A stretch of DNA of 64,000 nucleotides from Cytophagales bacterium (GTDB lineage: Bacteria > Bacteroidota > Bacteroidia > Cytophagales > Cyclobacteriaceae): assembly GCA_020402945.1 (NCBI GenBank), contig JADBYQ010000079.1, forward strand, positions 1-64,000. The letters run 5' to 3'. The notes under the pieces were generated by a model. That model searched no databases, was not told the origin of the DNA, and was given only the letters and a program-made list of their open reading frames with translations. Below, one piece after another: positions 583-24,710 of the stretch (position 1 is the first letter of the stretch; every line of letters begins with the position of its first letter). The translations under genes were made by a program, and so were the position numbers.

Positions 583-978
583 CTATTCGTCTCTATGGAC
601 ATTAATTTCTCCAGAGTAATGATGTGAGTACATATATTTTCTATTCCTATCGTAAACATTTATTGTCTGCCATCCCTTTTTATTTTCAATATCATATATG
701 ATTTTATGAATCAAAGAGACAGATGTCGAATCAATTGAACTAGACTTTAAAACCATGTTTACATAAATTAATTCGCACGGTATAGGCTCAATAGAGACAA
801 TCTTACCAAAAGAGTTTTGTACTTTAATGATTGCCTCTTTTTCATACTTTCCAAGATCTCCGCAAATCCAATTTGTCAATCTATTACAAGAAATAGTTAA
901 CGAAAAAACCACTATGAATATCAATGGATAGAAAAAATAATTCTGGTATTTATTAGTGCAACGTAGTCGGTAAACCAT
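583..978 (-). CDS. Putative immunity lipoprotein paired with the RHS toxin tip
   Basis: A 131-aa protein of unknown family. A basic start (MVYRLRCTNKYQNYF), a hydrophobic stretch and the lipobox-like LTISC around residues 27-31 suggest a type II signal peptide and a lipidated cysteine, placing it in the periplasm or outer membrane. The open frame extends upstream to 1140, but the ATG at 978 is preferred because it directly precedes the signal sequence; it overlaps the end of the RHS gene (stop at 953) by 26 bp. A small gene overlapping the 3' end of an RHS gene is the classical place for a cognate immunity protein, and lipidation would suit neutralising a toxin in the periplasm. Its DNA is clearly AT-rich (16 G+C in 661-720), unlike the RHS core. 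The immunity role is inferred from position only. Confidence 0.65.
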   Translation of the reverse strand: MVYRLRCTNKYQNYFFYPLIFIVVFSLTISCNRLTNWICGDLGKYEKEAIIKVQNSFGKIVSIEPIPCELIYVNMVLKSSSIDSTSVSLIHKIIYDIENKKGWQTINVYDRNRKYMYSHHYSGEINVHRDE

Positions 979-3900
979 GGTATGCTCTCCATTTATTAAG
1001 CCCTTCGTGATTTCGAATAACATCCTTCCACTCGTGGGCTGTTGGCCCTCCTCCCCTTGCTGGGCGATTGAACAAAGCATTCCAAAAATTTCCACTTTGC
1101 CAATCATTGATGAAGAGCCCACGAAGTTCATTAGCATCACCTATACTCATGGCAAATCCAGGCCCATATGCTTCAGCTGTAAGAAACATACCCATATGGT
1201 GCTCAAGGGTATTGAGGCGCTCTGTACTGCCTCCTTTGGCAACCCAATCATGGGTCATAATTGATAGGCTTATCGCATTTCCAAGTCTAGGGTCTTTCGC
1301 AACAAGATCTCCCATAAAACCTGATGCGTTGTGCGGAAATGCTTCAGCCGCTTTGAAAAACCAATCTGTCCCAAAATCTTTATTCTCTATATACCCAATG
1401 AAAGTATTCCAACCACCCTTCATTATATCTGCTCCAATCGCATTTAGAACAGAAGCATCGTATTTATTTTCTGATAGGTGCTCAAATCCATCAATTTTCC
1501 CCGATCCATCTATCCAACTCACTTTGCCTGTTGCAATCTCTTTATAAAAATCGAAAAACTTACCCCCATCTGGATCAACCCCACTCACCGGATTATTCCC
1601 CATTCCAACATAAGGTGAATAGAACTGCCCTGCTGGGTCTTTGCTTGTCCACCTTCCAATAACGGGATCATACTCGCGTAACTCGAAGTGATTCCAACCG
1701 GTCTCATCGTCCTTCTCTGCATACTTCCCCTGATACCCATAACGGTATTTCGCATCGAGATCGATCCACTTCTGCTCCCTCAGCACCCCGCCCCAAGCTT
1801 CATAATCCGTTGCCTGCGCCACCAATGGTTTGTGATGGATCACGCTCACATCGTCAAACCACACTTCGGTGTTTTCGCTTTCGTTGCTCACCCACACGTA
1901 GATGTAGCCCGGCTGTGCAATGGTGATAGGGCTATCAAATTTTGTCAGGTTGGCATTGGTGTAGGGGTTGTTGCGCTGCGCTTCTTCAAAGCCTGCACTG
2001 GCCGGCACCTGCAGAGCGCCACCGTTCACCACCAGGTAACTGCTGTTGAACACCACGTAGTTGATGTAGGCTCTGGGCGCATTGGGGTCGTCTTGGTTGC
2101 TGGGCACTGCGGCCAGCACACCAGAATTTAGTGCGGTGGCAGCTTGGGTTATACTCTCCAATCCATTGCTAAATACATATTGGCCTGCTAGTGCCGAGGC
2201 AATGATTGCCTTGATGGGTGCGTTGGTATAGCTGGCTTTGATTTTAAAGCGTGCCCAGGCACTTAAGTCAATCTGGTCGCCCGGGCTCACGCTCAAGGCA
2301 ATGGCCGGCCCTACGGATTTTTTATCGGGTGCGAAATTCGGATCGGGGTGGCCGGATATCCAATGTAGGTTGGCCGCACGCGAAGGGGCAGCGGTAATGG
2401 CGTTACTTGTATGGTTCATCTGCAAATCGCGCCTTTCTGTTTCAAACAGGTTTTTGAAATACACATTCTCGCGCACACGTGGGTTGGTGTAGGTGGCTGT
2501 GCCATCGTCTTCCATGGTGGCGGTGTATTCGTTAGCATGGATACGCACTATTGCACGCACGTTGCCCAGGTGGTCGGTGATCTCATACGCTGTTGAGCCT
2601 GCATCTGTATTTGACTGATCGGCTGCTATGGAATGTGCCGGGTAGTAGGTGGCCAGTTTGCCGGCTCCGTAAATGGGAACCTCCGTTTGCGTGTAAAGAG
2701 ATGAGGCATCATTCTTCTCTTTATCGAGTGTCTGCTCGTAGATGCTGAGGACATTTCCGCTGGCATCGCGGATGTACCAGGTGGTTTTGATTTCACCACT
2801 GGGCTGCGAGGCAGGCGGATAGGCCACCTTTGTCAAACGGAAGCCGCGATCATCGTAGGTATATCGCACGGTGGGTTTTGTTTTACCAACGTCTTCATAT
2901 ACCGCTACTACTTTGCCTGTTACATCGTAGTCTACCCATTGGTCTTTCTCGTTTGCATCTGTCTTATCAACGGCAATCATCTGGCCGATTTTATTGTATT
3001 CATAATTATTGGCATACCCGCTTACACTCTTCAGCTGATTGTTGTTTTTGGTGAGATCATACGTGTAAGTAAAGTTATGCTGCAGTTGCCCCTTATCGCC
3101 ATAGCGTTTAAGTGTCTTTATGTTTCCGTTAGGGTCATAGGTCATACCCGAGAGGCGGTAGTTGTTTCCATCCAGTACGTACCCATTTGCAGAAGAATTC
3201 TGTCTGGCAAAAACGGCTTCCTTTAGCTGGTATTTTTCATCGTAGTCGTAGAGGTACATGCCGCTGAGTTCGCTGTCGGTAGTGCCATAGGCTTTGTCGG
3301 TTCGCCAGCGAGCGGTGGTGATTAGGCCGTTATAGAGAACGGGTGCAGAGGTGAGGGACGATAGTTGATTGACTTGGATGGGTGCAGATTGTAATGTCAT
3401 GCCAGTGACTAACGTATTGGTCATGCTCCATCGGTAATTGCCTTCGTCCGCTGCTGTGGGGTTGCTCTTGGTAAATGTTTTTTGCGTGGCGTCTTGGTTC
3501 TGTGCATTAATGTTAAGCCATGTACCGTTAGGCAGTTGTTTTTCCCAAACAATGATGGAGTTCACTGTCAAAGGACGAGCTGGTATAGTTAAGTTAGTGA
3601 GGCCAAAGGTAATGGTTGACACATCGCTTATGTTTTTTTGAGGTGCGTAAGTGTATGCTTGTAGGCCTTTATTTACCATAGGCTCCAATGTTGAAAAATC
3701 CAACAAGTTATTTTCAACAGCCACCGTGAGGTTTGCTTTGTTGGGGTTGGTAGCCAAGTTTGGTACTGAGGTGAAGTTGTTACCCGCTAGGTTGAGGGAA
3801 GTAAGCTTGTTCCAGCCTACGAAGTAATTATTGGGCAATGCCCCAGTAAGTTGATTGTTAGCTACGAAGAGTGTTTGAATGTTGGCGGCATTCAAAAAAT

Positions 3901-6900
3901 TGGCAGGGAGAGCTCCAGAAAGTTGGTTGTTGTTTAGGTTCAAACCCGTTAAGTATGCCAAGTTTCCAATGGAAGTAGGTATTTCTCCCGTAAGCTGGTT
4001 GGTGTCAAATGAAACGCCTATGAGTGTCTGCTTGTTTCCCACCCATGCAGGTATGGATCCTGTCCGGTTGGCATACGTCATGCCAAAGTAGGCAAGGCTG
4101 GGCAGTGTCCCAATCCAATCTGGAATGGGGCCTGGAGTAAAATTGCCAGCAAGCCCAAACACACGAAGGTTGTTCAGGCCGCTATAATCAGGTATGTCCC
4201 CAGTCAAATTCGCTGAGATGACAGACAGCCAAACCAGGTTCGGGAAATTCTTGAAGTAGGTTGGCAAATTGCCAGAGACTGCGGTGTGCGAAAATTCAAA
4301 ATCTGTTAAGTTGACAAGTGTGCTCCATTGAGAAGGGATTGGACCATTGACATTGTTTGCCCTCATATTCAAAACCTTGAGACTGGTAAGATTGCCTAAT
4401 GAAGAGGGCAATAGTCCATTTAAATTGTTGCCTACAAAATAGAGCGAGGTTATATCCTGATTCTCTATACCCACTCCAAACCACGACCCCATCTCTGCTG
4501 CAGTGGCCGTGGCAGGCCAAGTGGTAGGCCAGTTGGTTTTGTTTGCCCAGTTGGCACCATTGGTGCTGGTGAATAAGTCTTTTAGTGCGCGATACTCGAT
4601 GGCATCGGGAACAGCTCCTTCAAAACGAATCACTGTCGGATAGGACTGTAGCGTTAAATTGGCAATCGTACCCTCGGTAATCGTCAACCGATATGTACCT
4701 GCATCGCCAACAGTTGCCGTGGTGCGTTTAAATGTTTTTTGGGTGGCATCCTGGTTGAGTGAATTGACATTTTGCCACGAACCGTTCGTCTGTTGCTTTT
4801 CCCAAACAAACGTACCCGTTGCTGTTGGAGATATAGTGGGCGAAATAAGCAAGCCGGAAGTTGTGACGCCAAGTGCCTTTGTATGTGATACGTTATTGAT
4901 CGTGCCATTCTCAGAATACGAAGCTGTATAAAATGAACAATCGCCAAAGAGCTTTCCCGATGAAGGGGTCAACGAAGTGTAAAACGTTACACCATTCTTT
5001 TTATACAAAATAGAAGATCCTTTGCGCTCAATTCGAAACAGGTCTCCTATTGAATATTTTATGACTGGATGGCCAACAAAAACTCCCCCCTCAAAAACAG
5101 TAAGCGCAGCGCTATTTTGAAAATAGATTGAATAGTTGGTATTGGGGAAACCGCTTGTATATGGATAGGTTCGTTTTCTTTCTACAGTAGACAAGCCGAT
5201 CATTTTGTACGTTTCGGTCTCTCCTGCCGCGAACTCGATGTATCCCTCAGCATTATCAGCAATCAGCTCCGATGAAAACGCGCCTGCATCCCAAGAATCT
5301 GTTGCACTGCCTTGGCGAGAAATAGAAGCTTTGGTTATGTTTACGTTTGTACGCTCCACCCAATTGACGGCTTGACTAACTTCCTGAGAAAAAGAAATTG
5401 ATTGCTGAGGCGTGTAGTTGAACGAAGCGAATTTGCCAACAGTCGACTTGATGCTTTCAAAGCCTAACTTGTTGTTGCTTATGTCGACCGACAAATTTTG
5501 GCGGTTGGGGTGCTGGGAGAGATCGGGGAAGGAGGTGAAGTTGTTTTGACCTAACTTTATCACGCTTAAATTCGCCATCGCGCCATATGAGCTGTTTACC
5601 TGACCTGAGAGTTGATTATTTGAAAAATCGAGTTCTAATAGATATGGGCTTGTAAAACTAGGCAACACTCCAGTGAGTTGGTTATTCGCCAAATAAATGC
5701 CGGACAGTATTGGCAGCGAACCAATTGAAGAAGGAATTTCACCAACAAAGTTGTTGTTCGAAAGGTAGATGCCGGTTAACGTTGATTTTTGAGCCAACCA
5801 ATTGGGCAGAATACCTGTCCTATTACTCGCCTGCATCACGAAATGTCGGATTTTGTTTAGGTTGTTCACCCAATTAGGAATTGGGCCTGGTTCGAAGTTT
5901 CCCTCTATCCAAAGGAAATTCAACTCGACAAGCGCTCCCAACTCGGGCATTGGCCCCGAAAAGTTATTGGATTGCAGCAATAAAGAGGTTAGACCCGTAA
6001 AGCTATTTAGATAGGCAGGAATAGGTGTAGAAATCGCTGTACCCACTAGATCAAGTGATTTGAGATTTGTAAGACTCTGCCAGCTTTGTGGGATCGTCCC
6101 AGTTAAGGTGTTGTGTCGCAGGTTAATTGTTGTCAATGACGGCAGACTACCCAATGAGACAGGAAGCGACCCGACTAGCAAATTACTTTGAAAATGCAAC
6201 CCAGTTATGTCTCCGTTCGCAACCGTCACCCCAAACCACGTTCCAAACTGTGCACTAGTTGCCGTTGCCGGCCATGTAGTAGGCCAGTTGGTTTTGTTTG
6301 CCCAATTGGCACCGTTGGTGCTGGTGAACAAGTCTTTGAGGGCATTGAACTCCACTTGGTCAGGCACATTGCCCAACTCTAGAGTTGTGACACTAGTCAC
6401 TGCTGTATAGGCAGATAATCCTGTCCCACTGTTGTTTATCGCCCGAACACGGTAAAAGTATTGTGTGCCTGCGGTAAGTCCGGTGCTGGAAAACGAAGTT
6501 ACGTTGGCAGCCGTTGTAGCGACTACAGCATAACCAGTACCGGCTATCAACGAGCGTTCAATTTGAAAACCTGTTTCGTTCGCTGATGCATCCGTCCACG
6601 TAAGATTGACTTGTGTTTGCGAAGCAGCAGTGGCCGCCAGCGCAGTTGGCGCAACTAAGTTGGCAACAGCAACTGCTTCTGGCGTGTTGAGCGAACTTCC
6701 AACTCCATTGGTTGATCGGATACGATAAAAATACCTGGTACCGGCTGTGAGACCTGTATTAGAAAAAGTAGTGGCATTAGCGGCCGTTGTGTTGATCAGT
6801 GTGAACCCAGACCCACTAATAGTCGATCTTTCAATCTGAAAACCGGTTTCATTGTTCGAGGCATCTACCCAAGTTAGGTTAATCTGAGTGGTGGAAGTGG

Positions 6901-9900
6901 CTACTGCAGCCAATGTAGTTGGTATAATTGGTGCCATTGTGCTGGTAGAGAACTCTGATGAGTTGTTTGAGCTACCTACCGCATTGACGGCTCGCACCCG
7001 GTAGAAGTAGGATGTGTTTGCTGTAAGTGCCGTATTTGAAAAAGAAGTGGCATTCGCAGCAGTGGTTGTCACTAGCGTATAGCCAGAACCTGAAGTAGTG
7101 GATCGCTCTACCTGAAAGCCAGTCTCATTGTTGGATGCGTCAACCCAAGTAAGATTGATCTGAGTAGATGAAAAGGCTGATGCATTTAAAGTAGTTGGCG
7201 GTAATGGTGCGGATGTGCTGGCAGTAGCTTGTGGCGCATAGCCTGAGGTGATCGATCCATTGATTGCACGTACGCGGTAGAAGTAAACGGTATTAGCGGT
7301 CAATCCAGTATTGGAAAACGTAGTCGCGTTGGCAGCAGCCGTGGAGATCAAAGAAAACCCAGAGCCGGAAGTCAATGAGCGTTCAATTTGAAACCCGGTT
7401 TCGGAAGTAGATGCGTCCACCCATGTTAAATTTATTTGTGTGGATGAAGCAGCTACGGCTGTCAACATTGTGGGTGCAGCAGGTGCTGACGTTAGTGCGC
7501 TTGCTTCAGCTGTGGGGACAGAAGTACCAACGGCATTCACCGAACGAACCCGATAAAAATATCTGGTGTTTGCTGTTAAACCTGTATTTGAGAATGAGAC
7601 CGCGTTGGCTGCAGTAGTAGTAATCAACACAAAGCCAGTGCCCGAGGTGGTCGATCTTTCTACTTGAAAACCAGTTTCATTTGTAGACACATCGGACCAT
7701 GTCAAATTGATCTGGGTTGCTGACGCAGCAACGGCTGCCAGTGTAGTCGGGGCGACTAGGCCAGCGATGGCATTCGCTTCGGCCGTATAGGCAGAGTTCC
7801 CTGTGGCGTTGACAGCGCGGATGCGGTAGAAGTATTGGGTGCCTGCGGTAAGCCCAGTGTTGACGAACGACACTGCGTTTGCAGCGGTGGTGCCCACCAA
7901 CGTAAAGCCTGTCGAAGTTGTCAGCGACCGCTCTACCTGAAAACCCGTTTCGTTTGTGGACACATCAGCCCACGTCAAATTGATCTGGGTTGGTGATGCA
8001 GCAACGGCTGTCAGCGCGGTCGGGGCAACCAAACTCGTGGTGGCATTTGCCTCAGCCGTATAGGCAGAGTTGCCTGAGGCGCTGACAGCGCGGATGCGGT
8101 AGAAGTATTGGGTGCCTTCAGTAAGCCCTGTGTTGGCGAACGACACTACATTAGCTGCGGTTGTGCCTACCAACGTAAAGCCTGTCGCGGTTGTCAGCGA
8201 CCGCTCTATCTGAAAGCCCGTTTCGTTTGTGGACACATCAGCCCACGTCAAATTGATCTGTGTTGCTGATGCAGCAACGGCTGCCAGCGTGGTTGGGGCG
8301 ACTAAGCCAGCGATGGCATTCACTTCGGCCGTATAGGCAGAGTTCCCTGTGGCATTGATCGCGCGGATGCGGTAGAAGTATTGGGTGCCTGCGGTAAGCC
8401 CTGTGTTGGCGAACGACACTACATTAGCTGCGGTGGTGCCCACCAACGTAAAGCCTGTTGCGCTTGCCAGCGACCGCTCGATCTGGAAACCTGTTTCGTT
8501 TGCCGAGGCATCGACCCAAGTCAAATTAATTTGAGTCGCTGATGCAGCAACGGCTGCCAGCGCGGTCGGGGCAACCAAACTCGTAGTGGCATTTGCCTCA
8601 GCCGTGTAGGCAGAGTTGCCTGTGGCGTTGACAGCGCGGATGCGGTAGAAGTATTGGGTGCCTGCAGTAAGCTCTGTATTGGCGAACGACACTACATCAG
8701 CTGCGGTTGTGCCTACCACCGTAAAACCTGTTGCGCTTGCCAGCGACCGCTCGATTTGGAAACCTGTTTCGTTTGCCGAGGCATCCACCCATGTTAAATT
8801 AATTTGAGTCGCTGATGCAGCAACGGCTGCCAGAGTGGTTGGGGCAATTAAGCTCGCGGTGGCATTTGCCTCGGCCGTGTAGGCAGAGTTGCCTGTGGCG
8901 TTGATCGCACGGATGCGGTAAAAGTATTGTGTGCCGGCTGTAAGCCCTGTATTATCGAATGACACCACATTAGCAGCAGTTGTGCCTACCACCGTAAAAC
9001 CTGTTGCGCTTGCCAGCGACCGCTCGATCTGGAAACCTGTTTCGTTTGTGGACACATCAGCCCACGTCAAATTGATCTGGGTCGCTGATGCAGCAACGGC
9101 TGTCAATGTGGTTGGGGCAATTAAGCTGGTGGTGGCATTTGCTTCGGCCGTGTAAGCAGAGTTACTTGTGGCGTTGATGGCACGGATGCGGTAAAAATAA
9201 CGTGTGCCTGCTGTAAGGCCGGTGTTGGAAAATGATACCACATTGGCAGCAGTTGTGCCTACCAACGTAAAGCCAGTAGCTGTTGTTAGAGATCGCTCGA
9301 TCTGGAAACCTGTTTCGCTTGTGGATGCATCCACCCAGGTTAAATTGATTTGTGCAGTTGATGCTGTAGTGGCAACTAAAGTGGTGGGTGGTATTGGGCC
9401 ACCCGCGGCTATTGTTGCCATGCTGGACTCCGCAGTATAGGCAGACGTACCATCGGCATTGATAGCCCTCAGGCGATAGAAATAAGTAGTGCCTGCCGTG
9501 AGGCCTGTATTCGAAAAGGAAATCGCATTTGCGGCTGTTGTAGTGACCAAGGTGAAGCCTGTCCCCGTTGTCAACGAACGCTCTATTTGAAAGCCAGTCT
9601 CATTAATTGAGCCATCCGCCCAAGTTAAATTAATCTGAGTGGTATTGACAGCCGTTAGTAGCAATGAAGTGGGCACCATCAGGCTCGTGGTCGCACTTCC
9701 CTCGTTCGTGTAAGTAGAAATACCTGTCGCGTTCACTGCACGTACTCGATAGTAATATTTAGTACCGGCCGCAAGGCCAGTATTTGAATAGGATACCGCA
9801 TTGGCTGCGGTTGTAGCTAACAACGTAAAGCCTGTACCGCTAGTAAGTGATCGCTCTATCTGAAAGCCTGTCTCGTTACTTGAACCATCCACCCATGTTA

Positions 9901-12007: not shown

Positions 12008-12079
12008 ATAAGGCGACTATTCTCTTTAGCTAACCATTCTTTTACTTCTAAAACGCGTTGATCTAATCTCACACTATTT

Positions 12080-12490
12080 TTAAGGTGTCATAAACTCATA
12101 ACCACTACAGCTCAAATCAAAGATTGACCTCGATGCGCCTTCCAAAATAATCATCGTGATAAAAAGCTTTCCGCCTGTCCTCTTAAAAATAAGTTGTCCT
12201 TTTTGTGCCCCCGACTCAATCTTTAGTGTAGCCCCGCCATCTTGATCTATGTTATCCCAACTGCCATTGCTTCCCACCACCGCGATTGATGCTGCCAATA
12301 CACCATTCTTTGAAATGAAATCAACCTTTGTTGGAGTCGAAATCAGTTCTTTGAAGTGATCCGTTGGCCTGCCAGCTACGACATCCTGAACACCACTCAC
12401 TTTCCATTTTATGGTGCGTGTTGAAATCTGCGCTGTAGAGACTACCAGACTGATAAAAAAAAGAAATAGTGTGATAATGCTTGCTTTCAT
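12080..12490 (-). CDS. Small secreted protein between two RHS genes
   Basis: A 136-aa protein with a clear signal peptide (MKASIITLFLFFISLVVSTAQ) and no family I recognise. The mature part is predicted to be mostly beta strand, with repeated hydrophobic/polar alternation, a DNIDQDGGA turn and a single Cys near the C-terminus. The gene starts 9 bp after the stop of the 1894-aa protein and ends 72 bp before the 3684-aa RHS gene, so it is almost certainly cotranscribed with them. Its position between two halves of an apparently split RHS protein suggests an accessory, chaperone or bridging role, which is inference only. Confidence 0.7.
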   Translation of the reverse strand: MKASIITLFLFFISLVVSTAQISTRTIKWKVSGVQDVVAGRPTDHFKELISTPTKVDFISKNGVLAASIAVVGSNGSWDNIDQDGGATLKIESGAQKGQLIFKRTGGKLFITMIILEGASRSIFDLSCSGYEFMTP

Positions 12491-12499
12491 AATTAAAAA

Positions 12500-15400: not shown

Positions 15401-18184
15401 CGGAGCTGATAGCGTTACGCTGCCTCCATCGCACAAGGCGTTCGCAGAGGAGGATAAATCTAACGCAGGCAAAAGTTCTCCTACAGCAATCGTTCGGGTA
15501 ACACGGCACCATTCACTTCTGGAGGCGGTCGTCACTTGTGATTGGCCTGGAATTCGATTGACTCCATCCCTACCACCACCATCTCCTCCACCGCTAGGGT
15601 CAAACGCAACTTCCAAATCATGAAACCCACTCGTGGAAAAAGTTAGTGTTACAACACTGTTATCGTTCCCGATACGAGCCCCATTCAAAGACCAGGTGTA
15701 CGAACCACCGTTTTGGTTAGAATAAAAAGTGTACTCCCTTCCCACACAAAAATTGTTAGCATCAGTTTCAATAGAGCAGGGTGGATCTGAATAAGTAACG
15801 GTCAAACCTGATCCGGGGGAAAAGCAGCCGTTGCCGGTGTAACTCAGGTTGAATGTGGTTGTACTGCTCACGTAAAAATCCACGATAGCGCCTGTTTTTA
15901 TTTGTCCAGTACTTGACGTCCACTTAAGATATTGTTGTTGATCAGCAGGGATAGAAGCGGCATCTGGAGTTGAGAGCGTTACAGTGCCAGGCCCAACTTT
16001 GTTTGTTGTAGAGGCTTCAACCCTAATAGGGCTAGTATTGCTGACCGATACTGCAATATCCTGCGGGGTGCAACTTGTGAAGATGCTTTGCGCACCCAGT
16101 CTTGCAGTATTTCTTACTTTGCCACCACCATCTCCTCCACCAGAGTCTTCAATTAATTCTACTGAAATGGTCTGGGTTCCAGCCCCAGTAAATGTAATTG
16201 ACGCAGTCGAGTTAATGTTTTTACCAGTGTTAATATTCGAAACGGAAGTTGTTGTGCCGGTGGCGGTATTAGTCACATACCAAGCATAGGTATAAGGGGC
16301 TCCAGAAGTGCTTGTGGCAGAGGTGCTAAAAGTGTATGGTTTGCCTACACAAAACGCAGTGGAGCTTGTTGTAATCGGGCAAGGGGGTGGCTCTACTGAA
16401 ACATACACCTGTGAGCCGAGATAACACTCCGGGCCACTGTAATCAAGATAAAAAGTGGTGGATGCCCTAAGGTTAGTAGCTGTAAATGTACGGACGGGAG
16501 CATAATACCCTGACGGGGTCGAGCGCCAACTCAGGTAAGTATCAGGCACTGGAGCAGATGTTGACAAGTCAACACTTCCCCCTTCATAGATGACTGTTTT
16601 TGAGGCCTCTGCCTGTAAAGGAGAACTTTGATTTACGTTGACGGTCAGGGGCTGTGGCACGCATCCCAGACTCGAAGCCGTGGTAGCCACCAGCCTATTT
16701 CTGCCACCGCCCCCCCCTCTACCTCCATCCCCTCCATCCCCACCATCATTGTTTGCTTCAAACGAGATTGTGAATGTGCCAGATCTTGGAAAATTTATTG
16801 AAGCAGAAGAAGAACTAGTGTAGCCAGGTACATCAACGCCATCTATTTTCCATCTGAAAGCGCTTCCGTTTGCAGAAGTTTGAAAGTTATACGTTTTTCC
16901 CGCACAAAATGAGGTGACATTCGATGAAATGGTGCAAGGTGGGTCGGTGTAATTTACCGTTATTGACTGCCCAGTATAGCAGCCAGAACCGATATAAGAT
17001 AAAGTAAAAATTGTGGTTTTGTCGACATAAGCATCTACACCTGTTTGACCAGCTGGAAGGGAATGGTTTTGATTGGATGTCCATCTCAGGAAACTCGTTT
17101 CACTTCCCGGAATATTTGTTGGGGTAAATAAACGAACAGTACCTGGTCCAACTTGGTTTGTTGTAGAGGCCTGTGCTGAGAGAGTGGTTGCATTGTTGAC
17201 AGTAACGGTAATCGCTTGAGGAGTGCAGTTGAGGCCGGTGCTTTGTACAGCAAATTGTGCGATACTCCTGACATCACCACCACCACCGCCACCACCACCA
17301 CCATCACCACCACCACCGGTGTCTTCGATTGGGATTACTGAAATGGTCTGGTTTCCAGCTAGAGCCTGAGTAAAGGTAATGGATGCAGACGACCCGGTGT
17401 TATAGCCTGTGGCAACGTTAGTTACTAGTACCCCCCCCACATACCAACGATAGGTATAAGAGGAACCCGTGGCTGAAGTATCAAACAAATAGGTATTGCC
17501 CACACAAAACGAAGTGGCGTTGGTTGTAATAGGACAAAGGGGTGGCTCTACTGAAACATATACCTGTGAGCCTAAATAACACTCCGGGCCATTGTAGTCT
17601 AAATAGAATGTGGTGGATGTGGTGATGCCTGTAGCAGTAAATGTGGGGCCGGATGCCCAATTGCCGATTGGATTGGAGCGCCAGCTAAGGTATTGATGTT
17701 GATCGGCAGGCACCGCAGTGTTTGTGGATAAGGTGACATCGCCCAATCCATATAAAACGGATGTTGACGCGGTAGCTTGCCATGGAGAATAACTACCCGA
17801 TACATTTACATTGATGGCTGGTGGAGTGCAGTAGTCAGTAAAAAACCTCACAGCTTGTAATTGTAAACCTCCACGGCCACCCCCATCTCCGCCATCTCCT
17901 CCTCCCCCATTGTCACCACTGACTGCTACAGATACCTGATAAGACTGGTTACCAGAAGTGTTGGGGAAGGTGATATAGGCAAAGGAACTGGTGTAGCCCG
18001 GCACAGGAGTGCCATTCAAATACCAGGTGAAAACACTACCATCCGAATCGGTACTAAATCCATAAGTCTTACCTGCACACATGGTGGCGGAACTTGGCGT
18101 GATCGTGCATTGGGCCAACGTGTCAGGGGAAAGACCCGCTATCAAAAGGGCTACCGCAAAGGAAAAAAAGATATTTGCTCTCAT
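12500..18184 (-). CDS. Large exported protein: Gly/Asp-rich Ig-like modules, DUF6443-like region and RHS repeats
   Basis: A 1894-aa protein. The ATG at 18184 overlaps the upstream stop as ATGA and is preceded by GAGAAAGG; an in-frame ATG at 18205 would put seven residues before the signal peptide (ending DTLAQ). The N-terminal ~900 residues are repeated modules of Ig/PKD type, each starting with a Cys and CxGKxYxFxT followed by a GSxFTWYLNG-like strand; five of them contain Gly/Asp-rich loops such as GGGGDGGDGGG. From ~1180 comes a region like DUF6443 (HTKSYDGLG..., FDQRGQSLQSQTKTF), then YD-type repeats (YDELGRVVWMAQQ, YEYDKNKRLLKVY). The end has NIHGWLTQINHPE and DVFGMVLEYYE, motifs that in single-chain Bacteroidetes RHS proteins lie just before the part found at the RHS start of the 3684-aa protein. 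It therefore looks like the front half of a split RHS shell. Two G8 tracts lie in the gene. Confidence 0.87.
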   Translation of the reverse strand: MRANIFFSFAVALLIAGLSPDTLAQCTITPSSATMCAGKTYGFSTDSDGSVFTWYLNGTPVPGYTSSFAYITFPNTSGNQSYQVSVAVSGDNGGGGDGGDGGGRGGLQLQAVRFFTDYCTPPAINVNVSGSYSPWQATASTSVLYGLGDVTLSTNTAVPADQHQYLSWRSNPIGNWASGPTFTATGITTSTTFYLDYNGPECYLGSQVYVSVEPPLCPITTNATSFCVGNTYLFDTSATGSSYTYRWYVGGVLVTNVATGYNTGSSASITFTQALAGNQTISVIPIEDTGGGGDGGGGGGGGGDVRSIAQFAVQSTGLNCTPQAITVTVNNATTLSAQASTTNQVGPGTVRLFTPTNIPGSETSFLRWTSNQNHSLPAGQTGVDAYVDKTTIFTLSYIGSGCYTGQSITVNYTDPPCTISSNVTSFCAGKTYNFQTSANGSAFRWKIDGVDVPGYTSSSSASINFPRSGTFTISFEANNDGGDGGDGGRGGGGGRNRLVATTASSLGCVPQPLTVNVNQSSPLQAEASKTVIYEGGSVDLSTSAPVPDTYLSWRSTPSGYYAPVRTFTATNLRASTTFYLDYSGPECYLGSQVYVSVEPPPCPITTSSTAFCVGKPYTFSTSATSTSGAPYTYAWYVTNTATGTTTSVSNINTGKNINSTASITFTGAGTQTISVELIEDSGGGDGGGKVRNTARLGAQSIFTSCTPQDIAVSVSNTSPIRVEASTTNKVGPGTVTLSTPDAASIPADQQQYLKWTSSTGQIKTGAIVDFYVSSTTTFNLSYTGNGCFSPGSGLTVTYSDPPCSIETDANNFCVGREYTFYSNQNGGSYTWSLNGARIGNDNSVVTLTFSTSGFHDLEVAFDPSGGGDGGGRDGVNRIPGQSQVTTASRSEWCRVTRTIAVGELLPALDLSSSANALCDGGSVTLSAPALGAVLDHIKQQYRWRSVPADSRFNGTGASLQANGLTQTTKFILENANICILPAEKTIEVYNTNVSPLRVTNGEYRNSKIIVQAQGNDFQRHYWQIAPNASSLNGTATDMPLLSVVEPYSANASGYYYIRSYLPPAITGTTGCWTSPSNVLQVQVGVAPPLAKISQIKRFGYNELYLTNDDAERIRQLATYHFVTASGSVLSTFLDKSSMYEEKTVFIRGIDNASQTWGPILPLTILFRGDNDLNWVHTKSYDGLGSSVTNVLSESKSYFDQRGQSLQSQTKTFHKQTSTDVYRPYVFASQALKDKYDRTVGGTLSAPIALPDFRYSSGFALNTEGKPLTYTDFDKAAPLSIDKKGTLGNYYSAQNQWNEKDVPNAKRLFSRTDFYEDGTGEERKSAQPGDTHFIGSGREVLKGTFPVGNSDASGEDNELTDYLNKRAIIFGGSALKKIEGVQTVVRDENERFVVSITDKSGKVLMTARKGTKLTDDFPSSISSDKMSYFYVLGAPNATTQSVTINGTSDYALENTISNTTVPKLTSPLPHTYNLQAGYYRVLPTSGTVKVSYTNYFTDIAYQFYNDAGRLVVSVSPNGYEQWHAAIGTSDPNNLKAIAAYPTIDKSTHTYNHQGWLLSMTEKDAGTTNYLYRRDGKIRFSQNAEQLLTKKYSYTNYDDLGRPIESGESSYQTANFNDLKVNLESIGSVWMGTGAVKKDWVQTGYDFPVTTPDFSPIPGFAQTYVRGAVSYTKNANTKTWYSYDELGRVVWMAQQPTTFPYAFVTQYVYDFLGNVLTTSTKAYSGSTSRDAFFHHYEYDKNKRLLKVYTSLDGNKKTLQAEYFYYLHGPLKRVVLATNLQGIDFVYNIHGWLTQINHPETSKDPGNDGGSGSSVRKDVFGMVLEYYERTMIPTTASLDPNQFHKIKIPNAQDAATVQTAVMMDPIELYRASMRHGIEGLRDMNRSAVISGGSGGGQ
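16710..16717 (-). repeat. G8 homopolymer in the coding strand of the 1894-aa protein gene
   Basis: Eight consecutive C on the window strand, so eight G in the coding strand, in a Gly-rich linker. Gain or loss of one base would truncate the protein. Such tracts are known slippage sites and also sequencing-error sites. Confidence 0.85.
17431..17438 (-). repeat. Second G8 homopolymer in the same gene
   Basis: Eight C on the window strand, encoding the GG of the segment YVGGVLVTN. It lies about 720 bp upstream (in coding direction) of the other G8 tract; the frame is intact at both in this sequence. Confidence 0.85.
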
Positions 18185-21100
18185 CGCCTTTCTCTCGTTG
18201 AACAACCCGAATTATTTGAATTGGTACAATCATTCACTGTATTTCTTATGTCGTCCGGGAGCTGGGACTTAATCCTTAAGCCCGGCTCTCGTACGAAGAT
18301 TCCACATTCGTTACTCCAAGTGGACAAGATGTACATACCAGTATAACATTCACCGTCCATCTCACAATCCGCCTGGTGAAGGATCAAAGGAGCAGGTTCA
18401 GGGCCTTCAAACTCTGCCTTCACGGTGTGATCGCCTTGTACACCAGTGAGTTTACACACGCCTCCATCTATGTAGGCTTTGGCTCCATCGTAAAGTGTAA
18501 CCATAGAGCCGTAGGTGTTCAAAAGCAATTTGCCATCTGCATAGAAGCGCGTGGTCAGGTTGTCGCATCGATTGGTTGCGCTAATGGTGGCATTACCACC
18601 CTGCAATACTTGCACAGTTGGGCTTATCACCCCACTGCCGCCTATTTGTGGAACTCCTGAAGTATTGGTCGCCACCTCTGTTGAAATGGTAACTTTGAAA
18701 GGCGTGGCATTCTTCAATCCATAATTGTAATTGATCTCACTAATCTTAGACACACCCTGAGTATTGGCTTGAAAACTTTCTTTATATGTTTCCGTCAACC
18801 GACCCATGCCATCGTATTTATACTCAGTATAAAGGTTGTTGTTGTCTAAGATGTATGTAAGCTCGCCCCAATTGTTGTAGACGTAGCTGGTCATAGCGGC
18901 CTGGTAAGGATGGATGCGGAAGTCATCGAAATAAACGGTACTTGATGCACCAACGTTTGAGATATACAAAGAAATGTCATTGTATGATTGTGGAACAGAA
19001 ACTAAGAGTTGTAGCTGATACCAGTCGCCTGCTTTTTTTGTAGCAACGGCCTGCACTTCGTTCAATGCACCGTCAGCGGAAGCGCCAAACTTTGCTGTAG
19101 GCAAAACTCCATTGCTATTCTTTAACCAAATAGTAGCCTGATAAACGCCACTCGCTTTCAATTGCCCTGACGAAGCATGATGAAGGATAACAGCGTCTCC
19201 GTTTTGTACGGCTATACTTTTACTACCTGTGTGGGCGATGCCAGTAGCTATAGAATAGGTTCCTGCCAATGAAACACCTCCCCCAAAGTAATCATTAACT
19301 GGTGTGTCCTCCGCATTTAAAGCAACAGCCTCCCAATAGCTGGCATTGGCCGCAGTGGCTACTACTTGTGTTTGATCTGCCGACATGTAAGAAGCCGCGA
19401 AATGCCCGTTGATATCTTTTGCCTCTAGTGCGTGAGAGAAGTAATCATATTTAGTAATCTCTCCATTTTTCTGCCAGCCCGAAGGCACGATAGCATTGCC
19501 ACTCCATGCATTGAAAGGAGTAAAAGCCGTCATAGGTTGTAGTCCATCACTATTTGTAGCAAGGGGTACATTTTGATCTCCACCAATAAAACTAAAGCTT
19601 GATTTCATTCGCCAGATGCCTGCCTGCTTTAAATTATCAGTACCTAAAACATAAGTCTGATCTGACCATGTTTGGGCGTTGGCCGAGACGAGGGCGAGTT
19701 TGTTGGCATCGGTCTGGTTTGTCCTGTAATTTGAATTGACTTTATACGTAAGGCTGCCTGCTGATTGCGTAAGCATGTTTTTGTTTTTGGGGTTATTTAC
19801 TTTCAATCCCATTCCAGAAAAGTTACCAGCTATTTGAGACGCTGTCATCCCTGAATATTCTGGTATTGAGTAGGCGGGAATGGTTTCAGCCACGTAATAA
19901 TTTCCATATCCATCTGTTGACAGAACTTTTGTGGGATTACCAGTATAAAAATCAAATGCTAGATTCTCTGTAGATGTGGTGATGCCTGTTTTATAATCCC
20001 TACTTTCTTGCCCTATAGAAACCAATGGGTATTCATCGCGCCTGCTCACAATTGGCATGGCGACATCATCGGCAATCCTGTATTCGCCAAAAACCTGCGA
20101 GACTACACCTTGATTTTTGAATTTAGATTTTAGATCAGACGCAAATTGATCTGTTGTTTTATTGTCATGGAGATAACGGTTCTCTACTTCACTCAAAATT
20201 TGATTGTTTGCTCCGTAGGTAGTGACTTTTTTCAATGCACCTACCCAAGCGGAAAAATCCTTAAGTGTTAATGGAGAAAGAGCTCTTGATGGAACAACAC
20301 CACAACCTATCTGATTTCCATATTGGTCAAAACACCGGAAAGGCGGCACTGATCCACTTGGGCAACCTGTGCCAACCGATTGACCTGTAACCACGGAAAC
20401 ACAATTAGCAGTGTAAGGTGGATCTTGCAAAGAAGTAATCCCTATACGTTTGATAAATTCTTCATCAAATGTTTGAAACTCGTAGACTTTCCTTCCAGGG
20501 ATTTTGGTGGGAATGGTCTCTCCTTCATTGAGGATTTCTTCCTCCACGACAACTGTACTATAGATAACACCTGGAGCTGGGATTTCACGGGCTAAATGAA
20601 TCAGCTTCGAATAACTACCCTCGTTAAGAGCCTTTAATCGAGCTCTCGTACTAGTCGCATAGCCTTGATTATCTCTTAAAAAATCAGGGTTTACAATGGG
20701 CGGTAATATCCCGAATGGCTCGTAAGGTGTTACCCCATTTAGATAATGATAATTCGAACTGGTCTCAAGATTCTTAGCTGAGTCATTGATCTTGATGGAC
20801 CTTACTCTAAGACCTCCCCCGAAAATCTCAGTCCTTGGCGTAAAGATATTTCCACCAACAAAATATGCCGGCCATCTATTTGATGAACCGTTATAGGTAA
20901 AAGTGCAAGCAATTTGTTGAACTTGGCAGTCTCTCCATGGGCCGTTCTTCGCAGTCACTCCACTAAATTCTTTTTCAGAATTCAATTTGTTTAGAAAATC
21001 TAAGTCATCAACAATAATTGACTTTGAACTTAGCTGAACCTCAACAATCTTAGATCTCAGAGAAAAGTAATAAGGCAGATAGGCAGAAGGACTATAGTTG

Positions 21101-23937
21101 AAGGGAGTACATGGCGAACATGACACAGAAGATCTATCATTTGTTTTATAGTTACCAATAATAGACATGTCAATGTAGTAATTTTGCTGGAGATATGGGT
21201 TTAAAGGATCTAGGCTATCAAAAAATTCAACTTTAAACTGTGAGCCACCTTGATGAATCACATTTTTTATTCTAGCTAAATGATTCCTTGACAATCCAAC
21301 GGTTGAATAACTATCTGATTCATATCTTACTGACACTTGGGAACCAGTGCTCAAGGCAATTTGAGACAACGACCAAGCATCAACATTTAATGACGAGTTG
21401 GGGGTAACTAAGTTTTTTAAGTTATCATTTAGACCCGTAACAAAATCAGATTTATAATGTCCCCAAATATCATAAGCATCCTTATTAAAAGCAGGGTTTT
21501 TCTCGTACTGAAAACTCATGGGCGGGATTAGGTCAGCCCCTGACTTCCCCCTGAACTTCACAGATTTTAAAGCGAGTTTACCAAACTTGGCATTGACGTT
21601 ACTATTTGAAAAACTGTTTGTTGTGCCAGGTGCCAGGGAGTAATCGGTACCTAACTCAATTGTCCTAATGGCTTTGGTTGCGCGCGCTAAAAAGCTTTCA
21701 TTGTCATCATAATCACTTCTGTTTAACAAATAAATTCGGTCGAGTTTTTTTGTTGTTGCGGGGTATGTGTAACAAGTCGAACTGCAATTGACCGTTCCGT
21801 TCTCGTCAACCACCGCACAGTTGCATGGATATGATTTAGGATTGAAACCACCTAATTTGCCATCAATGACCCCTCTACCATCCAATCTTGTACTAGTTTC
21901 AAAATAGGCTACGTGTGTACTAGTTTCTACCGTGCTCAAATAATACAACTCCTTTTTACCATAAGAATAGCTCTCAACCTCTTGATCGATATCTTTATTC
22001 GTGCCTTCGATAGGATTCCTCCAGATATAATCTTCTGCCTGATTGTAATATGCCGATTGATTATAATCAGAGTGCTTGCCATAAGCAAATTTTACCCAAT
22101 ACCCCCAATCATCTCTACTTATCGTGCCATCTCCTGCTGAATTTCTATTCACATAGTCAGGGCCTGTAACGGCTGTCAAGTACCAAGTATAAGCATAAGG
22201 ATGGTTTTCGGTATTTGTTTGATATTCCGAATTTTCTTTTCCTGTTTTAAAATACTTACTCTCTTGTCCATATGCATAAACGGGCAGTGCGTAATGATAA
22301 GAAACACCACTTTCGTTGGTGACCATAAAACCGCCAATTTGATTCGAAATGTCAAATGTGCCATTGCCTAAGTAGCTTACGGTGACTCTTTCGTTTTGTG
22401 GCCTTACATCGAGAAAACCTCTATCTTTCGCATATCCATCTCTTATCTGTTTAGTAGTAAAATATTCTACGTGCTTTGACCCTGCGAGATGAGATGTCCC
22501 TGCATTATAGCCTTCAGCAGGCGTAACAGTCTGTTCTGTCTGCACTGCGATCCCACCAATTGAATTAATCCTTAAGTTGGCAGATTCATAACTTAGAGAA
22601 TTTGAAAAATCATTTTTGAAGCGAAATTTCACAGGGTTGTTGAATTCAAAATAATTTGTCGCTGACGGACCCAAAAATTTGATAATATACCCTGGACCAC
22701 TTGACTTTTTTAGGTTCTGCCTGAACAAGGTACCTTTGTCAAAAATATACGGTTGAATGCTTCCTCCAAGCCCCTGCGCATTTACTTGGTAAGAATCGTA
22801 CGCGGGAAAACTGCCGCCTTTTGATTTGTCTGGGTCGTTGTTCTTGATCACGCCCCCCTCAGCATCTGGGTCTAAAAGAGCATAGGAGTCAAAGGACCAA
22901 TCATCGGGATTTTTTCCATTTGTGCTGGAAGCGTTCAAGGTGCCAATTACATTCACGTTGTTGGTTTCATCAGAATAATAGCGAACGTAGTTATAGCCCA
23001 ATGTCAACGTAAATGGCCCAATCGGGATTGGGGGAGTTGAGATGCCCCAACTTTCTGTAGTAACATTTCCCGCACGGCTGTTATTTGTTTGTATGGAATA
23101 TCCTGCTACACTCAACGAAGCTTTCAACCCATTTGATGAAATCGAAACACCAGTTGTGCCATTAGAAAGACCTGCAAAACCGCCTACAGTTTGAAAGTTA
23201 GTTGACACACCCACCGATGCGCTATTAGTACCTTTCGCTACCGTTAGGCCTATTTGACCCTGGGCGCCATTAGTGCCAAAACCAATGCCTCCACCCCATC
23301 CCTTGCCCCCAAACGTAGCACCCGCATTTGCATCTCCATACTCATACGAATTTCCATAGCCATCATTTCCGGCACCGACCGATGCATTTATTCCTATTCC
23401 CCCATGCTTACCGCCTACACCAAATGAAGTGCCAACGCTCATAGAGGTTCCAACGCCTAGCCCTAGATTACTGTCATTCGAAATTGATAGATTGAATGTT
23501 GCCCCAGCCACACCAACACCAACAGAGAATGTGCTTCTCTCACTACCGGCATTGTAATCGTTTCTTTTTCTTACAGCACCCAACTGATCATCCGGGTAGC
23601 CATTTACCGATCTACTTATTGCCCCAGGATTCAGCGTCCAACCCAACCCCACCCAACTAGCATCTTCATTGGGTTGTATGCCAGCATGATAGGATAATGA
23701 TAAAGGATACCCACCCGCAGGGCCTGGTACTTCGAGCAAAGGAACATTGTACGTAAAATCACCTGTAGCTAAGTTCACCATATCCGTAGTATCAACTGGC
23801 TCAAAACTAGTAGCTTCAGGAGCAGTAGGCCCAGAAGTCAAGGCCAATGAAATCGTAGGTGCTAAAACATTGAGAAGGTTGGCAAGAATAAATACAACAG
23901 CCCAAGGGCGCGCTAGTTTGCGGAGTGAGGAAATCAT
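18181..23937 (-). CDS. Large exported RHS/Tc-toxin-B-like N-terminal component
   Basis: A 1918-aa protein with a long hydrophobic signal sequence (residues 1-33) starting at ATG 23937. Residues ~48-118 hold the block typical of the first part of Bacteroidetes RHS and SpvB/TcB-like proteins: VNLATGDFTYNVPLLEVPG, LSYHAGI, WVGLGWTLNPGAISRSVNG. A Gly/Ser-rich stretch (~120-290) follows, then a long beta-rich region. Around residues 1540-1672 is a galactose-binding-like carbohydrate module ending VYFDDFRIHPY, then YD-type motifs (NNWGELTYILDNNN, YKYDGMGRLTETYKE). The last ~60 residues are Cys-rich. It is the first large gene of the RHS operon and couples to the next through an ATGA overlap. By analogy with TcB/SpvB and RHS proteins it probably forms part of a hollow beta-strand cocoon; that role is inferred. 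Confidence 0.85.
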   Translation of the reverse strand: MISSLRKLARPWAVVFILANLLNVLAPTISLALTSGPTAPEATSFEPVDTTDMVNLATGDFTYNVPLLEVPGPAGGYPLSLSYHAGIQPNEDASWVGLGWTLNPGAISRSVNGYPDDQLGAVRKRNDYNAGSERSTFSVGVGVAGATFNLSISNDSNLGLGVGTSMSVGTSFGVGGKHGGIGINASVGAGNDGYGNSYEYGDANAGATFGGKGWGGGIGFGTNGAQGQIGLTVAKGTNSASVGVSTNFQTVGGFAGLSNGTTGVSISSNGLKASLSVAGYSIQTNNSRAGNVTTESWGISTPPIPIGPFTLTLGYNYVRYYSDETNNVNVIGTLNASSTNGKNPDDWSFDSYALLDPDAEGGVIKNNDPDKSKGGSFPAYDSYQVNAQGLGGSIQPYIFDKGTLFRQNLKKSSGPGYIIKFLGPSATNYFEFNNPVKFRFKNDFSNSLSYESANLRINSIGGIAVQTEQTVTPAEGYNAGTSHLAGSKHVEYFTTKQIRDGYAKDRGFLDVRPQNERVTVSYLGNGTFDISNQIGGFMVTNESGVSYHYALPVYAYGQESKYFKTGKENSEYQTNTENHPYAYTWYLTAVTGPDYVNRNSAGDGTISRDDWGYWVKFAYGKHSDYNQSAYYNQAEDYIWRNPIEGTNKDIDQEVESYSYGKKELYYLSTVETSTHVAYFETSTRLDGRGVIDGKLGGFNPKSYPCNCAVVDENGTVNCSSTCYTYPATTKKLDRIYLLNRSDYDDNESFLARATKAIRTIELGTDYSLAPGTTNSFSNSNVNAKFGKLALKSVKFRGKSGADLIPPMSFQYEKNPAFNKDAYDIWGHYKSDFVTGLNDNLKNLVTPNSSLNVDAWSLSQIALSTGSQVSVRYESDSYSTVGLSRNHLARIKNVIHQGGSQFKVEFFDSLDPLNPYLQQNYYIDMSIIGNYKTNDRSSVSCSPCTPFNYSPSAYLPYYFSLRSKIVEVQLSSKSIIVDDLDFLNKLNSEKEFSGVTAKNGPWRDCQVQQIACTFTYNGSSNRWPAYFVGGNIFTPRTEIFGGGLRVRSIKINDSAKNLETSSNYHYLNGVTPYEPFGILPPIVNPDFLRDNQGYATSTRARLKALNEGSYSKLIHLAREIPAPGVIYSTVVVEEEILNEGETIPTKIPGRKVYEFQTFDEEFIKRIGITSLQDPPYTANCVSVVTGQSVGTGCPSGSVPPFRCFDQYGNQIGCGVVPSRALSPLTLKDFSAWVGALKKVTTYGANNQILSEVENRYLHDNKTTDQFASDLKSKFKNQGVVSQVFGEYRIADDVAMPIVSRRDEYPLVSIGQESRDYKTGITTSTENLAFDFYTGNPTKVLSTDGYGNYYVAETIPAYSIPEYSGMTASQIAGNFSGMGLKVNNPKNKNMLTQSAGSLTYKVNSNYRTNQTDANKLALVSANAQTWSDQTYVLGTDNLKQAGIWRMKSSFSFIGGDQNVPLATNSDGLQPMTAFTPFNAWSGNAIVPSGWQKNGEITKYDYFSHALEAKDINGHFAASYMSADQTQVVATAANASYWEAVALNAEDTPVNDYFGGGVSLAGTYSIATGIAHTGSKSIAVQNGDAVILHHASSGQLKASGVYQATIWLKNSNGVLPTAKFGASADGALNEVQAVATKKAGDWYQLQLLVSVPQSYNDISLYISNVGASSTVYFDDFRIHPYQAAMTSYVYNNWGELTYILDNNNLYTEYKYDGMGRLTETYKESFQANTQGVSKISEINYNYGLKNATPFKVTISTEVATNTSGVPQIGGSGVISPTVQVLQGGNATISATNRCDNLTTRFYADGKLLLNTYGSMVTLYDGAKAYIDGGVCKLTGVQGDHTVKAEFEGPEPAPLILHQADCEMDGECYTGMYILSTWSNECGIFVREPGLRIKSQLPDDIRNTVNDCTNSNNSGCSTRERR

Positions 23938-24021: not shown

Positions 24022-24627
24022 TTACATGTCTAAAAGTGTTAACTTAGGGCAGCCCTCTAAATCTTTGACTTTGAACCGCATACGGCTATTGCCCAGGTTC
24101 ATGCCAAATTCATTGAGATTAAATTGAACCCATTTTTGATCTATGGTTTTCTCTTTATTAAAGACCACGAGTACATCTGTTGAGCTGCTTAATCCGTAGG
24201 TGCGGTTCAAAATAAAATCGGCTACAGGTATGGTGTCACTGGTACTGGTGGTCATGTTTACAAACTCCGGCACCCTAAAGGAAAGTTGTTGCACCATTTC
24301 GCTGTACTGGCCAAAGCCCTGCGATTGATCGAGTGCTTCTTTACCCGATTTAGAGAGGCTAAGTATGAAGTAATAGTAGTTTTGGTATTTACTCCTTGCT
24401 TTTTCAATGGCTTCTTTCGCGGGCTTCTCCCCTACCTCTTGTTTGATCAACAAATCGGTAGGGCGGTAGGTAACAGCTACTTTATAATCGCCCACTTCGT
24501 TGGTAATTTTCAATCCATTGCTTTCATCCTGTATATATGCGATCAATTCTTTCTCGGTCGAGAAGGTTTTGTGTTTGCAGCCAGCCAATAGTGCTATCAG
24601 TAAAAATAGCGTTACCTTACTTATCAT
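24022..24627 (-). CDS. Lipoprotein of unknown function upstream of the RHS genes
   Basis: A 201-aa protein with a lipobox at LLAGC (Cys17), so probably a lipidated envelope protein. I recognise no family. The mature chain starts with a helix (STEKELIAYIQDESNGL) and continues with strands such as YKVAVTYRPTDLLIKQEVG and FVVFNKEK-like segments; it ends in a short C-terminal strand (MRFKVKDLEG). The gene is on the same strand as the RHS genes, 84 bp before the 1918-aa protein gene, so it could belong to the same transcription unit. It may be a surface or periplasmic accessory factor for the RHS proteins, but this is positional inference. Confidence 0.75.
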   Translation of the reverse strand: MISKVTLFLLIALLAGCKHKTFSTEKELIAYIQDESNGLKITNEVGDYKVAVTYRPTDLLIKQEVGEKPAKEAIEKARSKYQNYYYFILSLSKSGKEALDQSQGFGQYSEMVQQLSFRVPEFVNMTTSTSDTIPVADFILNRTYGLSSSTDVLVVFNKEKTIDQKWVQFNLNEFGMNLGNSRMRFKVKDLEGCPKLTLLDM

Positions 24628-24641
24628 TTGTGGATTACTTA

Positions 24642-24679: not shown

Positions 24680-24710
24680 GGAGTGTAGATAGAGGTTGTA
24701 ATCCGCTTGG

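What the first reader, a model, noticed from the sequence alone, without database searches (positions are those of the whole stretch)
953..23937. RHS shell apparently divided over two or three separate exported polypeptides
Seen: three giant genes in one direction, the first two joined by an ATGA overlap. The 1894-aa protein ends with NIHGWLTQINHPE and DVFGMVLEYYE. The RHS part of the 3684-aa protein opens with YNGLITTARWRTDKAYGTTD. Known: in single-chain Bacteroidetes RHS proteins these two motifs lie next to each other. Inference: the chain was cut at this point, 20 FN3 repeats and two LRR blocks were placed in front of the second half, and a small secreted protein was put between the two genes. 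The halves would have to assemble after export, unlike the one-chain RHS or the two-chain TcB-TcC cocoon.
Basis: partly seen in the sequence, partly recalled or inferred. Interest (0 to 1): 0.78.

Follow-up and report, generated by a model that had tools for sequence, protein, structure and literature searches.

The report
Toxin shell split between two genes
A Bacteroidota bacterium carries a toxin-enclosing protein shell, usually made as one chain, as two chains that look separately exported and would have to join outside the cytoplasm, which offers a natural test of how such shells are exported and assembled.

Summary
Observation confirmed. On a profile built only from ten single-chain relatives, B (1894 aa) covers positions 22-568 and the RHS part of C (3684 aa) 581-1145: adjacent, no overlap. 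The break recurs in L003, L004 and L046; 56 of 63 fetched ORFs with a complete B half run through the junction in one frame, including a paralog in the same genome, and 3 are cut by contig ends. Two single-chain relatives carry a 510-680-aa LRR insert at this spot, related to the LRR block of C, so the cut lies in a looped-out insert. In the solved relative SGS1 the spot falls in a stretch holding an exterior inserted domain. Gene A is separate wherever recognised; whether it is shell is not shown. The small gene S precedes the toxin-bearing gene in all six loci where it was found, fused or split, so it was not added at the cut. An Skp/OmpH-like chaperone and a lipoprotein gene precede A in 18 of 29 loci, this one included. 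Separate export rests on signal-peptide-like N-termini; pairing after export is inferred. The shell's structure prediction failed.

The parts
24711..25250 (-). Skp/OmpH-like periplasmic chaperone gene (179 aa) at the head of the cluster
   Evidence: PF03938, E 1.1e-25; relatives near A in 18 of 29 loci, this one included
24022..24627 (-). Conserved lipoprotein-like gene (201 aa; lipobox-like LLAGC seen by eye)
   Evidence: No Pfam match; relatives near A in 21 of 29 loci, this one included
18181..23937 (-). A: large exported-looking protein, 1918 aa, weak DUF6531 match at its start and weak RHS repeat near its end
   Evidence: no match in the PDB beyond one at E 0.43
12500..18184 (-). B: 1894 aa, signal-peptide-like start, Ig/PKD-like domains, first half of the RHS shell region, 69-aa tail
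12710..14686 (-). Shell half on B (profile positions 22-568)
   Evidence: 504 bits on the single-chain profile
12080..12490 (-). S: small exported-looking protein, 136 aa
   Evidence: Relatives in L003, L004, L042, L054, L147, each directly upstream of the toxin-bearing gene
953..12007 (-). C: 3684 aa; signal-peptide-like start, FN3 array, LRR blocks, second half of the RHS shell region, RHS core, variable tail
6383..11890 (-). Array of 20 FN3 domains of C (limits approximate)
   Evidence: PF00041, 20 stretches
5348..6376 (-). First LRR block of C (about residues 1878-2220)
   Evidence: related to the in-chain insert of L047, E 3.6e-49
3665..4612 (-). Second LRR block of C (about residues 2466-2781)
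1565..3361 (-). Shell half on C with the RHS core (about residues 2883-3481; the match continues to position 1145 of the profile)
   Evidence: 465 bits on the single-chain profile; TIGR03696
956..1564 (-). Variable C-terminal tail of C, presumed toxin
   Evidence: No Pfam match at E 1; position after the RHS core; inferred
583..975 (-). Candidate immunity gene overlapping the end of C (start chosen by eye)
   Evidence: no family match; inferred from position

Best explanation
B and C are the two halves of one RHS toxin shell whose gene is split inside a looped-out domain insert. Each chain has its own signal-peptide-like start, so B and C would cross the inner membrane separately, be kept from misfolding by periplasmic chaperones (an Skp-like gene heads the cluster) and pair in the periplasm or at the surface into one shell around the C-terminal tail of C, which is a presumed toxin. 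The FN3 and LRR modules of C would then hang outside the shell as an arm for contact with target cells or surfaces. Shown here: the split, its place on the shell profile, its recurrence, the relation of the LRR block to an in-chain insert, the conserved neighbours. Inferred: export, pairing in trans and where, the arm, toxicity of this tail, and the roles of S and A.
For: B and C cover adjacent, non-overlapping parts of a profile of single-chain relatives. The same split occurs in L003, L004 and L046, which form one clade with the window on the B half (100/98). Separate C genes of the window, L004 and L046 start with hydrophobic signal-peptide-like stretches, while two orphan C pieces checked do not. 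L047 and L048 carry a related LRR block in the chain at the same place. In SGS1 the junction falls in 2205-2486, which holds the inserted exterior wedge domain 2225-2304/2326-2465. Split locus L046 has a Tox-GHH tail and a SUKH-1 neighbour, so a split gene can carry a typical toxin and immunity pair. Skp-like and lipoprotein genes are conserved neighbours of A.
Against: No structure: the model of a fused relative had mean pLDDT 36. The B half alone matches no solved structure at E 0.1, and the B part of the SGS1 match is weak (i-Evalue 2.9e-4). LRR blocks resemble each other easily, so the relation may be inflated. In the C-half tree the insert form L047 lies among the split rows (98/71), so split-from-insert is not established against re-fusion or exchange. 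Signal peptides were judged by eye and hydropathy only. No match identifies the window's tail as a toxin. The outer-membrane export route is unknown.
Confidence: 0.62

Rival explanations
1. B and C do not form a common shell. C is an adhesin-like toxin that keeps a remnant RHS half needed for core cleavage, and B is an accessory or decaying protein.
For: The B half alone finds no solved relative. Orphan pieces with a C half and no B half exist in other genomes (L072, L074, L086).
Against: Both halves are open and full length on the profile in window, L004 and L046, and the B halves keep many invariant residues shared with the in-chain insert forms. The orphan pieces checked lack signal-peptide-like starts.
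Confidence: 0.17
2. Three-chain shell: A, B and C are successive segments of one very large shell, all exported separately; in most relatives it is a two-chain shell A + BC.
For: A directly precedes B or BC in many loci; weak DUF6531 match at its start in 4 of 12 members and weak RHS repeat near its end in 3 of 12. A genes are themselves cut in some loci (L065, L067, L078, L084).
Against: No solved RHS structure matches the profile of A, and A against BC by profile gives only 41 columns at probability 10.8%. L006, L057 and L079 have long single chains without a recognised A.
Confidence: 0.3
3. The split is an artefact of assembly or a recent frameshift.
For: The window genome is a draft in 136 contigs.
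Against: S and about 8.6 kb of FN3/LRR sequence lie between the shell halves, all open; A-B-S-C order recurs in L004 and, up to the contig end within C, in L003; B and C are also apart in L046.
Confidence: 0.01

Closest known systems
Single-chain Bacteroidota RHS proteins (DUF6443 type)
   Same: Same shell region and RHS core; ten of them built the profile that both halves match; 6 of 10 match DUF6443
   Different: One chain instead of two; most lack the LRR block at this place
TcB-TcC (BC part of Tc/ABC toxins)
   Same: Two-chain RHS shell with core and variable tail on the second chain (PMC8765631, passages)
   Different: Cut elsewhere: YenC2 has about 600 residues before its core, the C half about 480 profile positions including an extra domain of about 190 (estimate). 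No TcB domain was reported in A, B or C. Signal-peptide-like start on each chain here
SGS1, mosquito salivary protein with an RHS shell (PDB 8fjp)
   Same: Best solved match of the single-chain profile, E 1.8e-44; domains inserted in the shell sequence and shown outside (PMC9935623, passages)
   Different: One chain of 3364 aa; a wedge domain, not an LRR block, in the stretch of the junction
RhsA of Pseudomonas protegens and Tse5 (T6SS RHS effectors)
   Same: Matched by the single-chain profile (7q97 E 2.5e-33; 8cp6 E 1.7e-20)
   Different: One chain; delivered by T6SS (RhsA: PMC8765631, abstract and passages; Tse5: recalled); no PAAR domain was reported here
Bacterial teneurin-like proteins
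   Same: Matched by the single-chain profile (9pt5, 9ifo); exported by signal peptide (PMC13018210, passages)
   Different: One chain; not known from this clade by any search made here

Membership tests
RHS toxins (shell, core, variable tail) | RHS-associated core TIGR03696 above its cut-off | tested here: met
   C 3402-3481, 55.9 bits against 32.5
RHS toxins (shell, core, variable tail) | Complete shell region in one chain | tested here: not met
   Shared by B (h22-568) and C (h581-1145)
RHS toxins (shell, core, variable tail) | Toxin tail with immunity gene | tested here: inconclusive
   No family match for the window's tail or next gene; split relative L046 has Tox-GHH and SUKH-1
RHS toxins (shell, core, variable tail) | Hollow shell fold | tested here: inconclusive
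   Model of a fused relative pLDDT 36; sequence match to solved shells for the BC profile
Tc toxin BC (TcB-TcC) | TcB domains on the partner chain | tested here: not met
   None reported by Pfam for A, B or C at E 0.1, nor for A relatives at E 0.01
Tc toxin BC (TcB-TcC) | A TcA translocator gene in the genome | not tested
   No search was made for TcA
DUF6443 RHS proteins of Bacteroidota | PF20041 match at the start of the shell region | tested here: not met
   Not reported for window B at E 0.1; 6 of 10 single-chain members match at E 0.01
T9SS cargo | C-terminal T9SS sorting domain | tested here: not met
   Not reported on A, B, S or C in Pfam or NCBIfam at E 0.1, though the genome has SprA

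The most novel reading that the evidence does not exclude
Bacteroidota have a segmented, separately exported RHS weapon: A, B and C are shell pieces that cross the inner membrane one by one, are kept unfolded by a dedicated Skp-like holdase, and close around the toxin only in the periplasm or at the surface, held there through A or the conserved lipoprotein. Breaking the chain where exterior domains are inserted would then be a general way to build such shells: a second cut site (h256|260 in L066) and cut A genes (L065, L067, L078, L084) would be further cases.
Probability: 0.3. Interest if true: 0.8.

Novelty: new variant of a known kind. Interest (0 to 1): 0.6.

Why it matters
If the halves are exported separately, the toxin-bearing chain travels without a complete shell, and the shell has to close outside the cytoplasm. 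That bears directly on how large RHS proteins of Bacteroidota leave the cell, which is open here: no PAAR or T9SS sorting domain was reported on these proteins. The split also marks a place on an RHS shell where long domains can be hung, and the conserved Skp-like, lipoprotein and S genes are candidates for export or assembly factors that can be removed and tested.

Tried and rejected
Structure: AlphaFold2 on the fused relative L005 (1199 aa, 7 rows) gave mean pLDDT 36; S (3 rows) gave 51; neither was used for a fold search. The B half alone against the PDB: nothing at E 0.1. The profile of A against the PDB: one match, E 0.43, unrelated. A against BC by profile: 41 columns, probability 10.8%.

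An outer-membrane barrel in A residues 131-330: strong two-residue alternation (0 of 2000 shuffles), but only 13 of 28 A genes have their best such segment there, and control proteins of the BC set reach 0.53 against 0.31-0.61 in those 13. Kept as a weak lead only.

Promoter and terminator scan of 10500-19000: not above shuffles. Rejected: assembly artefact (recurrence) and 'same region twice' (no overlap on the profile).

Counting. The 63 B-complete ORFs: 51 single-chain and 7 B-only ORFs (one duplicate gene, L068, dropped), plus 5 single-chain judged from the listed ranges. Of the 7 B-only, 4 are the split loci and 3 end at a contig end (L048, L067, L077). The sample was chosen by likeness to B or C and is no census; ten of the single-chain rows built the profile, one of them the own-genome paralog. 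ORFs with a C half but no B half other than the split ones (L072, L074 twice, L086, and L122 at a contig end) and many short fragments were left out. All non-own places listed were fetched, 20 of 46 listed places were fetched afresh, and a few others lay in stretches already held, loci of 5 of the 6 other genomes with a match were fetched.

Literature: searches. No listed title or abstract start describes an RHS shell split in this way; most papers were seen only in these listings. Passages only were seen of PMC13018210, PMC8765631, PMC3482391, PMC9935623 and PMC7861908. Preprints and most subscription papers are not in the library.
Full report
What is there. Four genes run on the minus strand: A (18181-23937, 1918 aa), B (12500-18184, 1894 aa), S (12080-12490, 136 aa) and C (953-12007, 3684 aa). 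A's stop and B's start share ATGA. C has 20 FN3 stretches and LRRs and an RHS core at 3402-3481 (TIGR03696, 55.9 bits against a cut-off of 32.5), followed by about 200 residues without a Pfam match.

Is the shell region really divided? I built a profile (BC, 1155 positions) from ten relatives that carry the region as one chain, none of them split. Window B matches 22-568 (504 bits) and window C 581-1145 (465 bits): adjacent and not overlapping. L004 (Cyclobacteriaceae MAG) gives 22-581 and 578-1116; L046 (genome G074) gives 18-573 and 585-1127. L003, a close relative (B 96% identical), has A, B, S and the start of the FN3 gene before its contig ends.

How common is it? Among the fetched loci 63 ORFs hold a complete B half: 56 run through the junction in one frame, 4 are split (window, L003, L004, L046) and 3 end at a contig end. 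The single-chain ones include a paralog in the same genome (L042:6738-12653, 1971 aa) and a locus in another genome of the same genus (L147). In a sample of 148 genomes of the family, 28 had a match to the B half; all listed places were fetched and, besides the window, only G074 showed this split. Twenty loci from an order-wide search with the junction region of L004 C showed none. A phylum-wide search with the C half at E 1e-30 matched 7 of 395 genomes; loci from 5 of the 6 other genomes were all single-chain. These searches score only the best few candidates per genome, so this is no census.

Where is the cut? L047 and L048, both from genome G019, are single chains with about 510 and 680 residues inserted at 569|588 and 570|586 (L048 is cut by a contig end beyond position 664). 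These inserts resemble the LRR block of window C (E 3.6e-49 and 1.7e-43), of L004 C (7e-27 and 3.4e-64) and of L046 C (5.5e-19 and 1.3e-16). LRRs resemble each other easily, so the E-values are generous, but place and order agree. The gene break therefore need not cut any shell strand. The single-chain profile matches the solved mosquito protein SGS1 (8fjp, E 1.8e-44): residues 1737-2204 (weak, i-Evalue 2.9e-4), then 2487-2647 and 2647-2741 (strong). The junction, about 573|595 in the numbering of that profile as read from the printed alignments, falls in the unmatched stretch 2205-2486. In the SGS1 paper (passages) the wedge domain, 2225-2304 and 2326-2465, is one of four domains inserted in the shell sequence and displayed outside. 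This suggests that the junction is a surface place that tolerates inserts. It is an inference from sequence: my own model failed (pLDDT 36).

Direction of change. On the B half the four split rows form one clade (100/98). On the C half the three split rows group with the insert form L047 (98/71), L047 being beside L046 (92/88). A link between split and LRR insert fits, but whether an inserted chain was split, or a split pair was fused, or halves were exchanged, cannot be told.

Export. All four proteins begin with a hydrophobic, signal-peptide-like stretch (by eye and hydropathy), as do the separate C genes of L004 and L046; two orphan C pieces checked do not. No T9SS sorting domain was reported on A, B, S or C, although the genome has SprA; a weak NCBIfam match of S to a T9SS sortase N-terminus (13.6 bits against 40) covers only its signal-peptide-like start. 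Before A lie a lipoprotein-like gene (24022-24627) and an Skp/OmpH-like gene (24711-25250, PF03938, E 1.1e-25). Of 29 A genes with at least 1300 bases held upstream, window included, 18 have the Skp-like gene, 21 the lipoprotein, 18 both. This cluster is wider than the split and was not in the finding. It fits large chains crossing the periplasm unfolded; that the chaperone serves them is inferred from position.

The small gene S. S relatives were found at six loci: between B and C in the window, L003 and L004, and between A and fused BC in L042 (same genome), L054 and L147. In all six S lies directly upstream of the toxin-bearing gene (in L003 that gene is cut before its core). The L054 match was weak when found (20 bits). 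So S is an old companion of the toxin-bearing chain, perhaps its chaperone or a plug, and was not added at the cut. Its model (pLDDT 51) says nothing reliable.

The third gene. A is separate wherever recognised: no ORF of the loci scanned and 65 matches both profiles, nor any. Its start matches DUF6531 in 4 of 12 members and its end the RHS repeat in 3 of 12; for the window protein both are below the curated cut-offs. No solved RHS structure matches its profile. Whether A is shell is open.

Toxin. In split locus L046 the tail of C matches Tox-GHH (E 1.4e-17) and the next gene SUKH-1 (E 1e-6), a toxin and immunity pairing listed in PMC3482391 (passage). The window's own tail and next gene match nothing, so toxicity here is inferred from architecture. 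Two other contigs of the genome carry RHS-core sequence like that of C joined to other tails: C61 (74% DNA identity over 215 bases) and C12 (88% over 189 bases).

Known relatives. By core and shell sequence it is an RHS toxin, in two chains. TcB-TcC is also two-chain, but the cut is elsewhere: YenC2 has about 600 residues before its core, the C half about 480 profile positions including an extra domain of about 190 (an estimate), and no TcB domain was reported in A, B or C. That some lectin-like domains lie embedded among RHS repeats is noted in PMC3482391 (passage).

Verdict. The split is real, recurrent and precisely placed. That B and C pair after export into one shell is the best reading (0.62) and is not shown. 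The three-chain reading overlaps with it (it adds A), so the listed odds are not exclusive.

Noticed in passing
L066:7278-11606 (-) and L066:2992-7086 (-): A second kind of split in genome G022: first ORF covers profile positions 21-256, second 260-823 and on, and the second starts with a signal-peptide-like stretch. Many single-chain relatives carry roughly 700-1400 residues inserted at this place.
   Followed up: partly
L065:2-4690, L067:8764-14999, L078:2-5563, L084:3-4585: A-type genes that are themselves cut at about profile position 1247|1270, the second ORF with a signal-peptide-like start; in L067 the second ORF opens with an LRR-like block (seen by eye).
   Followed up: partly
window 24022-25250 (-): Lipoprotein-like and Skp/OmpH-like genes upstream of A, conserved beside A in many Bacteroidota loci.
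   Followed up: yes
L043:2123-2971 (-) and L044:85-962 (+): Other toxin-tip-like pieces in the same genome on contigs C61 and C12: RHS-core sequence like that of C joined to different tails, with a small gene behind each.
   Followed up: partly
L042:13880-14488 (-) and L044:1528-2118 (+): Two similar small genes that look like REP-associated transposases (recalled motif, not tested) lie near two of the RHS tips of this genome.
   Followed up: no
L072, L073, L074, L088: Arrays of repeated short ORFs, each with the end of the RHS core and a different tail, as in tip arrays.
   Followed up: no
window 22948-23547 (-): Gly-rich segment of A (residues 131-330) with strong two-residue alternation; 13 of 28 A genes have their best such segment in this part, but controls reach similar values.
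   Followed up: partly
L042:2417-12653 (+): Paralogous cluster in the same genome with order A', S', fused BC' (1294, 144 and 1971 aa).
   Followed up: yes
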